From JALTID01 sp027004335 [NCBI: bacterium] (GTDB lineage Bacteria; JALSQH01): a stretch of 15,923 bases of DNA. The notes under the pieces are model-generated. The model ran no database searches and had not been told where the DNA came from. It worked only from the letters and a program-made list of their open reading frames with translations. This document shows, piece by piece, positions 11,701-14,362 of this stretch. The position numbers were made by a program, and so were the translations under genes. The DNA is taken from NCBI GenBank assembly GCA_027004335.1, contig JALTID010000004.1, positions 1 to 15,923 of the forward strand, in the 5' to 3' direction. Every line of letters starts with the position of its first letter. The first letter of the stretch is position 1.

Positions 11701-11728
11701 TTGACAGTATTTTTTTACTTCTTATAAT
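11701..11728 (+). promoter_or_regulatory. Consensus sigma70-type promoter for rplM-rpsI
   Basis: TTGACA (11701-11706) and TATAAT (11723-11728) are both perfect hexamers with a 16-base spacer, as expected for a highly expressed ribosomal protein operon. The predicted start is near 11735, which leaves a leader of about 22 bases before rplM. That is too short for a structured L13-type autoregulatory leader upstream of the coding region. Confidence 0.85.
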
Positions 11729-11756: not shown

Positions 11757-12191
11757 ATGCGTACTTACAGTTTTAAGACTGGTGAAGTGGAGAAAAGGTG
11801 GTATCTCATTGATGCAAAAGGCAAGACACTGGGCAGGCTTGCCAGCCAGATTGCAAAGATTTTAAGAGGAAAGCACAAACCTGAATTTACCCCGCATGCA
11901 GATGTGGGAGATTTTGTAGTGGTGATAAATGCTGCAGAAGTGAGACTTACCGGTAAGAAATTAAATCAAAAGATGTACTACAAATACAGTGGATACCCGG
12001 GTGGTTTGAAGGAATTCACCGCTAAGCAGATGTTTGAAAGGCATCCAGAGTATGTTCTTTATCATGCTGTTAGAGGTATGATGCCCAAAAACAGGTTAGC
12101 AAGGAAGCAGATGAAAAAGTTAAGAATATATCCAGGACCTGAGTATCCACATCAAGCTCAAAAACCAGAGCCACTTGAGATAGATATTTGA
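11757..12191 (+). CDS. rplM: 50S ribosomal protein L13
   Basis: L13 is an early-assembling protein of the large subunit that binds 23S rRNA domain II. The 144 residues are the usual length, and family segments are clear: [16 protein letters not shown] near the N terminus, the [13 protein letters not shown] strand, the KYSGYPGG loop, and the [20 protein letters not shown] and HPHQ-like (YPHQAQKPE) C terminus. The ATG follows an AAGGTAGG ribosome site and a consensus promoter. rpsI follows directly, the normal rplM-rpsI pair. Confidence 0.98.
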
Positions 12192-12205: not shown

Positions 12206-12601
12206 ATGAGCGAAGATAGATGGCATGCTGTGGGAAAAAGAAAAACAGCTGTTGCAAGAGTGTGGTTAACGCCTGGTACGGGGAAAATTATTATAAATAA
12301 AAATATGCCTCCCGAAGAGTATTTTGACAGGATTACTTCACTTATAAAGATAAAGCAACCTCTTGCAATTACTAACCTTCAGGATAAGTTTGATATTTAT
12401 GTTAATATTAAAGGTGGTGGCAAGTCGGCTCAGGCTGAAGCAATAAGACATGGAATAGCAAGAGCTCTTGTGCTTTACGATGAAAACCTTAGACTTGCAC
12501 TTAAGAAAGCGAGTTTTCTAACTAGAGATGCAAGAAAAGTAGAGAGAAAGAAATACGGAAAGCATAAAGCGAGAAGAAGCCATCAGTTTTCAAAGAGGTA
12601 A
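12206..12601 (+). CDS. rpsI: 30S ribosomal protein S9
   Basis: S9 is a small-subunit head protein whose C-terminal tail reaches the P-site tRNA. From the ATG at 12206 it has 131 residues, the usual length, with the GKRKTAVARVWL N-terminal motif, GGGKSAQAEAIRHGIARAL, DARKVERKKYG and the conserved terminal Ser-Lys-Arg. It begins 14 bases after the rplM stop. argC begins ten bases after its stop, but an intrinsic terminator 55 bases downstream probably ends most transcripts there. Confidence 0.98.
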   Translation: MSEDRWHAVGKRKTAVARVWLTPGTGKIIINKNMPPEEYFDRITSLIKIKQPLAITNLQDKFDIYVNIKGGGKSAQAEAIRHGIARALVLYDENLRLALKKASFLTRDARKVERKKYGKHKARRSHQFSKR

Positions 12602-12611
12602 AATTAATTAG

Positions 12612-13619
12612 GTGGAAAAAATACGGGTTGCTATTATTGGAGCCAGTGGATACACAGGCGGAGATCTTCTCCGCCTTTTTTATTATCACAGAGGAGTTGA
12701 GGTTGTATCTGTCACTTCCCGTCGTTTCAAAGGCAGAGGGATTTCAGATGTTTTCCCTTATTTGAAAAGTATTTATCCGGATCTTAGGTTTAAATCTATA
12801 ACTGAGATCAGAGATGATGCAGATTTTTACTTTCTATCTCTACCCCATGGTGTTAGTATGCTTCATGCAAGGAAATTTCTTGAATATGGAAGGGTAATTG
12901 ACCTGGGAGCTGATTTCAGGCTTAAAAGCCGGGAAGGATATGAAAAATGGTACGGTGAACATCAGGATCCCCAGTTAATAGAAGAAGCTGTGTATGGACT
13001 TCCGGAGCTTTACAGGGAAAAAATTAAAGAAGCACGGCTCGTGGCAAATCCCGGTTGCTATCCAACTTCTGTGATTCTTGGGGCTTATCCTCTTGTCAAG
13101 GAAAACCTTGTAGAAGGAGCTGTGATCGTTGATTCTAAATCTGGAGTAACAGGTGCAGGCAGGAGTCCCTCAGAAAGTCTCCATTTTCCCGAAGTTAATG
13201 AGAATTTTTATCCTTATAAAATAAATGGACACAGACATAAGGCGGAGATGGATGAACATCTTGGGACGGATGTGATTTTTACGCCTCATCTTCTTCCTGT
13301 GGATAGAGGGATCCTCTCCTCTATTTACATGAAAATGAAAGAAAAGTTGAATAACAGCAACCTAAAAGAGGTGTACGAGAAATATTATGGAGGAGAAAAG
13401 TTTGTGAGAGTGATTGGTAATTCTTCTCCTGCTATTAAGAATGTGAGGGGGACCAATTTCGTGGATATAGGCTGGGCTGTAGATGGCGATATTGTGAAGA
13501 TTTTTGTTGCCATTGATAACCTTGTGAAGGGTGCCAGTGGACAGGCTATTCAGAATTTTAATATAATGGCAGGTTTTGTGGAGAATAGGGGATTGAAAAA
13601 CCTGCCTCTGTTTCCGTAG
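12612..13619 (+). CDS. argC: N-acetyl-gamma-glutamyl-phosphate reductase
   Basis: ArgC reduces N-acetyl-glutamyl phosphate to the semialdehyde with NADPH, the third step of arginine synthesis. The 335 residues match type 1 ArgC. Visible are the nucleotide-binding VAIIGASGYTGG, catalytic Cys149 in ANPGCYPTS, SGVTGAGRSPS, and the HRH motif (207-209). The start is GTG, because no ATG fits the N-terminal Rossmann strand. The nearest SD-like AGAGGT (12594-12599) is 12 bases away, so initiation may be slow. A strong intrinsic terminator lies within codons 15-24. This is the only CGC arginine codon I found in the gene, and it sits in the 3' arm of that hairpin. kdsB follows two bases after the stop. 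LysY of the alternative lysine pathway is a homologue, but nothing here favours it. Confidence 0.95.
   Translation: MEKIRVAIIGASGYTGGDLLRLFYYHRGVEVVSVTSRRFKGRGISDVFPYLKSIYPDLRFKSITEIRDDADFYFLSLPHGVSMLHARKFLEYGRVIDLGADFRLKSREGYEKWYGEHQDPQLIEEAVYGLPELYREKIKEARLVANPGCYPTSVILGAYPLVKENLVEGAVIVDSKSGVTGAGRSPSESLHFPEVNENFYPYKINGHRHKAEMDEHLGTDVIFTPHLLPVDRGILSSIYMKMKEKLNNSNLKEVYEKYYGGEKFVRVIGNSSPAIKNVRGTNFVDIGWAVDGDIVKIFVAIDNLVKGASGQAIQNFNIMAGFVENRGLKNLPLFP
12656..12681 (+). terminator. Intrinsic terminator inside the argC 5' end
   Basis: AGGCGGAGA (12656-12664) and TCTCCGCCT (12668-12676) form a perfect nine-pair stem, six of the pairs G-C, with a TCT loop. The U tract (12677-12681) follows at once. 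It is directional: there is no A run on the left side for the minus strand. It begins 55 bases after the rpsI stop, so it is well placed to end the rplM-rpsI transcript, but it lies within argC codons. Confidence 0.8.
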
Positions 13620-13621
13620 AG

Positions 13622-14362
13622 ATGAGTAATTATATTGTTATTCCCGCCAGATTCTCCTCCACGAGATTCCCTGGGAAATTATTGGCTCTCCTTTCAGGTA
13701 AACCTGTTATCAGATGGGTGGTAGAAAATGCGTTAGAAGTGAAGGAATGTAAGATTGTTCTTGCCACAGATAGTGAAAAAATTGCAGAAGTAATTTCTGA
13801 TCTGAAAGATGTGAGAGTCATTATGACCCCCTCAGATATCCCTTCAGGGACTGATAGAGTTGCATTTGCTGTTAAGGATCTTCCATCTCCAGAGTTTGTC
13901 ATAAACCTTCAGGGGGATGAGCCGCTTCTATCATCGGAGCTAATAGAAATTTTGCTTGAAAATCATCTTGAATCGGATCTTGATATTTTTACCCTTGCAA
14001 GAAAGTTAAGAGAAGATGAAGATCCCTCTGATCAAAACCTGGTAAAGGTTGTCTTTGATAGATATGGTAAAGCTCTTTATTTTTCCAGGAGTCCAGTGCC
14101 TTTTTATAAAAAAACTTCAGGAGATTATTTTATTCACATTGGCATTTACTCGTACAGATACAATTCCCTTGAGAAGTTTATCTCATTATCACAATCTCCT
14201 CTTGAAAGAGCTGAAAAACTTGAGCAGCTTAGAGCCCTTGAGAATGAGATGAGTATAGGGGTAAAGGTGGTTGATTATAATGGAGTTGGCATTGATACGG
14301 AGGATGATCTAAGACGGGCAGAATTACTATTGAAATATGGAGAGAAAAGTAATAGTATTTAA
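13622..14362 (+). CDS. kdsB: 3-deoxy-manno-octulosonate cytidylyltransferase
   Basis: KdsB couples CTP and Kdo to CMP-Kdo, the activated sugar for the lipopolysaccharide inner core. The 246 residues fit the family (about 248). Visible signatures are IPARFSSTRFPGK at the N terminus, ATDSEKIAE, SGTDRVA, the metal-binding NLQGDEP, YFSRSPVPF, HIGIYSYR, SPLERAEKLEQLRALE and GIDTEDDL near the end. The ATG is two bases after the argC stop with no clear Shine-Dalgarno sequence, so translation is probably coupled to argC. The CTP made by the downstream pyrG is its substrate, a sensible pairing. Its presence indicates an outer membrane with Kdo. Confidence 0.96.
   Translation: MSNYIVIPARFSSTRFPGKLLALLSGKPVIRWVVENALEVKECKIVLATDSEKIAEVISDLKDVRVIMTPSDIPSGTDRVAFAVKDLPSPEFVINLQGDEPLLSSELIEILLENHLESDLDIFTLARKLREDEDPSDQNLVKVVFDRYGKALYFSRSPVPFYKKTSGDYFIHIGIYSYRYNSLEKFISLSQSPLERAEKLEQLRALENEMSIGVKVVDYNGVGIDTEDDLRRAELLLKYGEKSNSI
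14330..14358 (+). promoter_or_regulatory. Possible weak promoter before pyrG
   Basis: TTGAAA (14330-14335, 5/6) and TAGTAT (14353-14358, 4/6) are 17 bases apart at the end of kdsB. Transcription from it would start near 14365 and include a small GATTG/CAATC hairpin (14366-14378) before the pyrG ribosome site. The match is modest and could be chance. Confidence 0.3.

What the first reader, a model, noticed from the sequence alone, without database searches (positions are those of the whole stretch)
12656..12681. Strong intrinsic terminator embedded in the first codons of argC, downstream of rplM-rpsI
A perfect nine-pair GC-rich stem with a three-base loop and an immediate U tract sits inside argC codons 15-24. 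It would stop ribosomal-operon transcripts 55 bases after rpsI unless a ribosome is already translating argC closely behind RNA polymerase. The GTG start and distant SD make initiation slow, so termination may be the default and argC-kdsB(-pyrG) expression may depend on argC initiation efficiency. The only CGC arginine codon found in argC falls in the 3' arm, which hints that codon choice maintains the hairpin. A simple arginine-stalling attenuator would act in the wrong direction at codon 5 (Arg), so the signal, if any, is unclear.
Basis: partly seen in the sequence, partly recalled or inferred. Interest (0 to 1): 0.65.

Follow-up and report, generated by a model that had tools for sequence, protein, structure and literature searches.

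The report
Ribosomal-operon terminator hidden inside argC
The stop signal that most likely ends the messenger RNA of two ribosomal-protein genes sits inside the first codons of the next gene, argC, kept there by unusual codon choice, and distant relatives carry similar signals at the same or another place in argC.

Summary
The hairpin is real: 9-bp perfect stem (12656-12676), 3-base loop, six T, 54 nt after the rpsI stop, inside argC codons 15-22. Alone it could be chance (0.3% of synonymous recodings match it); comparison says otherwise. The one family relative held (argC 73% identical, synonymous sites near saturation) keeps every stem base. A second family (f11, 21 genomes) has the same gene order and a hairpin at the same argC codons, the 5' arm in another codon phase; its stem third positions are nearly invariant although those codons are mostly rare. 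In family f60, 18 of 18 loci whose argC directly follows rpsI have a different, covarying hairpin inside argC; none of 17 with a spacer has an equally strong one at that site (15 have one in the spacer), nor do 2 without rpsI upstream. So the hairpin goes with rpsI: most likely the terminator, probably partial, of rplM-rpsI, written into argC where the spacer is missing. Arginine-specific attenuation is unsupported. Against: weak T tracts in f11, family f61 mostly lacks the device, the f60 contrast is phylogenetically clumped, and there are no expression data. A new variant of internal operon terminators.

The parts
11701..11728 (+). Perfect sigma-70-type promoter (TTGACA-16-TATAAT) upstream of rplM; the likely source of the transcripts that reach the hairpin
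   Evidence: 12 of 12 consensus matches; consensus match only
11757..12191 (+). rplM (ribosomal protein L13)
   Evidence: PF00572
12206..12601 (+). rpsI (ribosomal protein S9), stop codon 12599-12601
   Evidence: (PF00380)
12612..13619 (+). argC, GTG start, 10 nt after rpsI; host ORF of the hairpin
   Evidence: PF01118, PF22698, PF02774; ArgC trees
12656..12664 (+). 5' arm of terminator stem (AGGCGGAGA), argC codons 15-18
   Evidence: identical in G001
12665..12667 (+). loop; its first base is the only difference from G001 within the hairpin (GAT to GAA)
12668..12676 (+). 3' arm of stem (TCTCCGCCT), argC codons 19-22, holds the only CGC codon of argC
12676..12681 (+). T tract (TTTTTT, then ATTAT); predicted termination zone; in G001 TTTTCTGTTTT
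13622..14362 (+). kdsB-like cytidylyltransferase, downstream gene whose expression would also be stepped down
   Evidence: PF02348

Best explanation
The hairpin is an intrinsic transcription terminator that belongs to the rplM-rpsI unit. Because argC starts 10 nt after rpsI there is no room between the genes, so the terminator is written into argC codons 15-24 by synonymous choice (dual coding). RNA polymerase leaving rpsI makes the hairpin about 50-80 nt past the stop codon, outside the shadow of the last rpsI ribosome and before an argC ribosome can catch up; most polymerases stop, some read on into argC-kdsB, so a highly expressed ribosomal-protein unit is stepped down to a biosynthetic gene. 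Shown: the structure, its conservation in the one relative, extreme synonymous constraint in family f11, covariation in family f60, and its going with rpsI adjacency in f60. Inferred: that it terminates in vivo, how efficiently, that step-down is the benefit, and that the f60 logic holds for the window's lineage.
For: Nearest relative: stem identical at 18 of 18 bases although four-fold sites of 12 shared genes match at only 0.28-0.44 (its pyrG row is invalid and left out); of 4,183 16-codon windows, argC codons 7-22 (and the window one codon on) have the most identical codons, 14 of 15 with the same residue. f11 (21 genomes): GGG 21/21, GCG 21/21, CTC 20/21, CGC 21/21 at stem positions, with usage elsewhere in rplM, rpsI and argC of 0.11, 0.057, 0.24, 0.029. 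f11's 5' arm lies in another codon phase than the window's. f60: 18/18 abutting loci with the in-argC hairpin against 0/17 with spacer and 0/2 without rpsI; 15/17 spacer loci have a hairpin of -10.2 kcal/mol or lower starting 3-15 nt after rpsI. Third-third codon pairs covary in the 18: C-G 8, T-A 4, A-T 2, G-T 2, unpaired 2; A-T 12, T-A 3, C-G 1, unpaired 2. 17 of 18 f60 in-argC sites pass a terminator rule with T tail. A second embedded hairpin with eight T, 30 and 32 nt after an upstream stop, is kept in G000 and G001 in a SurA-like gene only 42% identical. Published: terminators in the first 100 bp of an ORF work in E. coli, and are maximal beyond about 30 nt from a stop codon (PMC4824070, passages).
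Against: No RNA data. The window's family has two genomes, so its case rests on invariance; conservation also covers seven codons upstream of the stem. In G001 the T run is cut to four. In f11 the T tract is poor: 11 of 21 pass the rule, and the Leu codon at the stem end is CTC in 18 of 21. Family f61: 56 loci abut but only 3 pass, 9 have a hairpin of -12 or lower. Only 2 of the 17 f60 spacer loci pass the same terminator rule, their stems being short or their tails less T-rich, and three of them (L154, L220, L222) fold to -13.9 to -16.4 elsewhere at the argC start. The f60 association is phylogenetically clumped: 5 changes on the tree, 1 independent pair on well-supported branches. L222 has neither hairpin, L221 a weak one in argC. 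In-gene synonymous shuffles give as strong a fold in the region in 1 and 2 of 60 for the two f1 loci and in up to 10 of 60 for some f11 loci.
Confidence: 0.74

Rival explanations
1. RNA 3'-end barrier: transcription ends further on (Rho or cleavage in argC) and exonucleases trim back to the hairpin, which protects the rplM-rpsI message. No T tract is needed.
For: In f11 stem pairing is conserved while the T tract is not; going with rpsI fits equally; many f60 spacer hairpins also fail the T-tail rule or have short stems.
Against: f60 in-argC sites have T-rich tails (17 of 18 pass), the window has six T, and the second embedded hairpin has eight T in both genomes.
Confidence: 0.15
2. argC-linked regulation: the 3' arm can pair with the argC start region (AGGTGGA 12610-12616 with TCCGCCT), or argC initiation or arginine supply decides between hairpin and read-through.
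For: Seven pairs incl. one G-U read from the sequence; arginine pathway gene; rare CGC codon.
Against: In f60 the in-argC hairpin follows spacing to rpsI and is absent in the 2 loci without rpsI; position in argC differs between families; RNAalifold on 21 f11 sequences found the hairpin and only weak other helices.
Confidence: 0.05
3. Chance plus protein constraint: the conserved ArgC peptide TG(G/A)(D/E)LLRL is hairpin-prone and codon preference does the rest.
For: 0.3% of synonymous draws give as good a stem.
Against: The coded pattern TAYACNGGNGSNGANCTNCTCCGCC occurs in 4 of 290 genomes, all f1 or f11 (many of the 290 may lack ArgC: 37 of 59 had a match); of 103 argC loci only the 21 f11 loci and G001 have a stem of 8 bp with 6 GC there; mostly rare codons are nearly invariant in f11; f60 covariation at another peptide.
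Confidence: 0.05
4. DNA operator (inverted repeat GGCGGA-N-TCCGCC) bound by a protein.
For: Both arms conserved, spacing near constant.
Against: Only one copy in G000 and one in G001; f60 uses unrelated sequences with covariation; of 11 other copies in the 8 f11 genomes searched, 7 were read and at least 4 lie between genes, 3 of them with T-rich tails as in terminators.
Confidence: 0.01

Closest known systems
Internal operon terminators that step down expression (Methanococcus ribosomal-protein/RNA polymerase operons, PMC10450193; clostridial ABC importer operons, PMC9045158; E. coli rpsU-dnaG-rpoD and rplL-rpoB, recalled)
   Same: Partial terminator between a highly expressed and a lower gene of one transcript; in the archaeon a ribosomal-protein gene upstream.
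   Different: In the passages read those lie in intergenic regions; here the hairpin is inside the next ORF, kept by synonymous sites, and in f60 lies in the spacer or the ORF according to spacing.
Terminator inside the first 100 bp of an ORF, synthetic constructs in E. coli (PMC4824070, W48)
   Same: Same geometry: terminator 30 bp inside an ORF that follows another gene; retains most of its efficiency despite translation (passages).
   Different: Engineered phage terminator, not a conserved natural dual-coding site.
Attenuators of amino-acid and pyrimidine operons (trp, recalled; pyrBI, named in passages of PMC4824070)
   Same: Terminator overlapping translated codons.
   Different: There a short leader peptide and a competing structure or pausing sense a signal; no leader peptide or convincing competing structure seen here.
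ORF-internal 3' ends in E. coli (PMC7815308, listing and start of abstract only)
   Same: 3' ends inside ORFs.
   Different: Not compared site by site with these.

Membership tests
Intrinsic (Rho-independent) terminator | GC-rich stem of 7 bp or more with short loop | tested here: met
   9 bp, 6 GC, loop 3
Intrinsic (Rho-independent) terminator | U-rich tract right after the stem | tested here: met
   window TTTTTTATTAT; relatives vary: G001 TTTTCTGTTTT; 11 of 21 f11 and 17 of 18 f60 in-argC sites pass the rule
Intrinsic (Rho-independent) terminator | 3' ends of transcripts at the T tract; release in vitro | not testable with these tools
   no RNA data
Internal operon (step-down) terminator | lies between two genes of one directon, downstream of a highly expressed gene | tested here: met
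   rplM-rpsI then argC-kdsB-pyrG, same strand; high expression of ribosomal-protein genes is general knowledge, not measured
Internal operon (step-down) terminator | downstream gene transcribed less than upstream gene | not testable with these tools
   no RNA data
Amino-acid attenuator | leader peptide and competing antiterminator helix, signal-dependent | tested here: inconclusive
   no Rfam match at gathering thresholds in the window; RNAalifold on 21 f11 sequences found the hairpin and only weak other helices; no leader peptide noticed on reading; in f60 the hairpin goes with rpsI, not argC

The most novel reading that the evidence does not exclude
Dual-coded terminators are a regular device in the window's isolated lineage and in Aquificota-like families: where genes abut, the upstream gene's terminator is written into the first codons of the next ORF by synonymous selection, and it moves between spacer and ORF as gene spacing changes. 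argC after rpsI is the best case; the SurA-like gene of G000/G001 is a second, and other gene starts are candidates.
Probability: 0.35. Interest if true: 0.75.

Novelty: new variant of a known kind. Interest (0 to 1): 0.58.

Why it matters
It shows a likely regulatory signal and a protein written in the same bases under demonstrable selection, and gives a natural experiment (spacer or ORF location of the hairpin) for asking how ribosome following and termination are balanced. Terminator finders that look only between genes would miss it, and codon-usage or synonymous-rate methods would misread it. If it terminates, it should also make non-stop argC messages, a testable cost.

Tried and rejected
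Rfam search of the window at gathering thresholds: nothing. Only one relative of the window's family was found in the genome sets searched, so a many-genome test within the family was impossible. Arginine attenuation and start-site sequestration: considered, disfavoured. DNA operator: disfavoured. Single origin of the f1 and f11 hairpins: the ArgC trees put f1 outside the Aquificota-like families, but f1+f11 as one clade is not rejected (AU p 0.23); undecided. Other gene starts: strong terminator-like hairpins in the first 200 nt of ORFs are more frequent than in synonymous shuffles in 400-kb samples of G011 (6 against 0.25) and G101 (3 against 0.5), not clearly in 375 kb of G000 (3 against 1.75, one a start miscall); three followed up (tuf-rpsJ, rplO-secY, rplS-rnhB) lie on hairpin-prone repeated peptides and their conservation was not convincing, so they are not claimed. 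My first scripts misread loci on the minus strand or missed loci by a narrow motif and pyrG was read in a wrong frame; redone (103 loci; L055 and L058 dropped) and dropped. Searches for print (in a library of open-licence papers) showed no report of a terminator in argC after rpsI; most hits were seen as listings only, and passages were read of four papers (PMC4824070, PMC10450193, PMC9045158, PMC12207403).

Full report
WHAT IS THERE. The window (39% GC; G000, a 1.5 Mb draft genome in 262 contigs, 80% complete) has rplM (11757-12191), rpsI (12206-12601), argC (12612-13619), kdsB (13622-14362) and the start of pyrG on the plus strand (Pfam for the first four). A perfect -35/-10 promoter match stands before rplM (11701-11728); no other match of 10 of 12 or better lies on the plus strand between it and argC. 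The hairpin AGGCGGAGA-TCT-TCTCCGCCT with six T (12656-12681) is inside argC, 54 nt after the rpsI stop. Its fold has z -4.7. It heads a list of 16 terminator-like sites, a number that chance gives too. Given the peptide, 292 of 100,000 synonymous draws have as good a stem. So structure alone is suggestive, no more.

NEAREST RELATIVE. The genome sets searched gave one genome of the same family (G001, also JALSQH010000187, an unnamed bacterial MAG). Its argC is 73% identical, with the same rplM-rpsI-argC order. Four-fold sites of 12 shared genes match at 0.28-0.44 (the pyrG row is left out because I read it in a wrong frame), near saturation. Yet the hairpin differs by one loop base (GAT to GAA), while the T run is cut to four (TTTTCTGTTTT). 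Among 4,183 windows of 16 codons in 12 genes, the two at argC codons 7-22 and 8-23 have the most identical codons, 14 of 15 with the same residue; with per-residue rates the chance is 4e-4 for the stem codons and 1.7e-3 for the seven codons before them, which are also unchanged and which I cannot explain. In the window's stem most synonymous bases pair with bases that the protein largely fixes (read from the codon phase), so invariance, not covariation, is what selection on the stem would leave.

A SECOND FAMILY. Of 103 argC loci compared (G001, f11, other Aquificota-like families and diverse genomes; two dropped), 58 have rpsI within 400 nt upstream; only G001 and all 21 f11 loci have a stem of 8 bp with 6 GC pairs at the window's site. 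f11 was first seen in one distant genome, G011; argC was found in 21 of its 22 genomes. At the stem GGG, GCG and CGC are used in 21 of 21 and CTC in 20 of 21, while in rplM, rpsI and the rest of argC these codons make up 0.11, 0.057, 0.029 and 0.24 of their residues. Over 215 four-fold columns the mean share of the commonest base is 0.60; beyond the rpsI overlap the fully invariant ones in argC are codons 20, 21 and 25 (numbered from 0), all in the stem, and codon 15, scored on 17 sequences. The outermost pair is G-C 8, A-T 6, G-T 2, A x C 5; the innermost is G-C 16, A x C 5. The 5' arm is G|GCG|GA in f11 but GGC|GGA|GA in the window: another codon phase. A pattern for the coded hairpin hit 4 of 290 genomes: G000, G001 and two f11 genomes (how many of the 290 have ArgC was not tested; 37 of 59 did). 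The inverted repeat GGCGGA-N3-7-TCCGCC occurs once in G000 and once in G001; in 8 f11 genomes it occurs at argC in 7 (the eighth has a G-U pair) and at 11 other places, of which 7 were read and at least 4 lie between genes, 3 with T-rich tails.

THE NATURAL EXPERIMENT. A scan of loci with rpsI upstream showed other strong hairpins after rpsI. In family f60 (41 genomes searched, argC loci from 37) 18 loci have the ArgC glycine motif 21-29 nt after the rpsI stop; all 18 have an 11-16 bp hairpin inside argC starting 111-122 nt after the stop, at the peptide GK-LKEVFP (-14.0 to -20.8 kcal/mol), and 17 pass a terminator rule (stem of 7 bp or more, -9 kcal/mol or lower, 5 T of 9 with 3 in the first 5). 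The 17 loci with a longer distance (53-114 nt) lack it at that site (-1.7 to -9.9); 15 of them have a hairpin (-10.2 to -16.5) starting 3-15 nt after rpsI in the spacer, though only 2 of the 17 pass the same rule, stems being short or tails less T-rich; L221 has only a weak argC hairpin and L222 neither; L154, L220 and L222 also fold to -13.9 to -16.4 elsewhere at the argC start. Two loci in which no rpsI was found upstream have none (-3.0, -4.0). In the 18, pairs between two third codon positions change together: C-G 8, T-A 4, A-T 2, G-T 2, unpaired 2; A-T 12, T-A 3, C-G 1, unpaired 2; A-T 9, G-C 5, G-T 4; G-C 14, A-T 3, G-T 1. The hairpin thus goes with rpsI adjacency, not with argC. On the ArgC tree the trait changes 5 times, but only one independent contrast lies on well-supported branches; L164 and L169, of one genus by group code, differ in both traits.

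MECHANISM. The simplest reading is a terminator of the rplM-rpsI unit. Published work in E. coli fits the geometry: a terminator is silenced when a few nt from a stop codon, reaches full efficiency beyond about 30 nt, and still works 30 bp inside a translated ORF, losing about 10% (PMC4824070; passages read). The window hairpin starts 54 nt from the stop; f11 hairpins about 30-33 nt; f60 111-122 nt. Read-through would feed argC and kdsB. That the event happens, and its efficiency, are inferred.

AGAINST. f11 tails are poor: 11 of 21 pass the T rule, and the Leu codon at the stem end is CTC in 18 of 21, better for pairing than for a T tract. In f61, 56 loci abut but 3 pass the rule and 9 have a hairpin of -12 or lower. 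Within-gene synonymous shuffles reach the observed fold of the region in 1 and 2 of 60 for the two f1 loci, in 0 of 60 for 12 of 18 abutting f60 loci, 9 of 21 f11 loci and 3 of 56 f61 loci, and in up to 10 of 60 for other f11 loci. An exonuclease-barrier role remains possible, above all in f11.

HOW GENERAL. In a first 124 kb of G000 (later 375 kb, 59 of 262 contigs) a second strong embedded hairpin with eight T lies in the signal-peptide codons of a SurA-like lipoprotein gene, 30 nt after the stop of the gene before it. The G001 homologue, 42% identical, also has a hairpin and eight T there, 32 nt after the preceding stop. Terminator-like hairpins in the first 200 nt of ORFs exceed synonymous shuffles in 400-kb samples of G011 and G101 but not clearly in G000; three follow-ups were inconclusive.

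NAMES. Family codes f1, f11, f59, f60, f61 are those of the search tool. That f11 is Desulfurobacteriaceae, f60 Hydrogenothermaceae and f61 Aquificaceae is recalled, from genome sizes and relatives; one locus named Thermocrinis (Aquificaceae, L052) groups with f61 loci in the tree. The window's genome has no relative among those held between its family and its domain, and its ArgC falls near or just outside the Aquificota-like families.

KNOWN OR NEW. Step-down terminators after ribosomal-protein genes are known (PMC10450193, passages read: intergenic, archaeon), and internal terminators tune other operons (PMC9045158, passages read: intergenic). Natural, conserved terminators written into the next ORF and alternating with a spacer location were not found in my searches, which cover open-licence papers only. 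I file it as a new variant of a known kind.

Noticed in passing
L076 (G000:C17) minus strand, hairpin from 853; L399 (G001:C254) from 1504: Second embedded terminator-like hairpin with eight T in the signal-peptide codons of a SurA-like lipoprotein gene, 30 and 32 nt after the stop of the preceding Pro/Gln-rich gene, kept in both genomes at 42% protein identity.
   Followed up: partly
window 12633-12653: Seven argC codons upstream of the stem are also unchanged between G000 and G001 (chance about 1.7e-3); no pairing role found.
   Followed up: partly
L312 (tuf-rpsJ), L297 (rplO-secY), L293 (rplS-rnhB), L302 (trxA-lpxA): Terminator-like hairpins 57-105 nt after the stop of the preceding gene, inside the next ORF, in G011 and G101; the first three lie on hairpin-prone repeated peptides, conservation unclear; the fourth was not followed.
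   Followed up: partly
L006, L089-L108 (f11): argC appears to start at a GTG inside rpsI (about 31 nt overlap), with rpsI codons there unusually constrained in 21 genomes.
   Followed up: no
G000 sample: Terminator-like hairpins later than 200 nt inside ORFs also exceed shuffles (8 against 2.0); may reflect false ORFs.
   Followed up: no
L062 (G000:C2) minus strand, from 2015: Strong hairpin with T-rich tail inside a methyltransferase-like ORF, 146 nt after the upstream stop.
   Followed up: no
L187 (G087, family f61): One f61 genome has the f60-type hairpin at the same argC site; most f61 genomes lack it.
   Followed up: no
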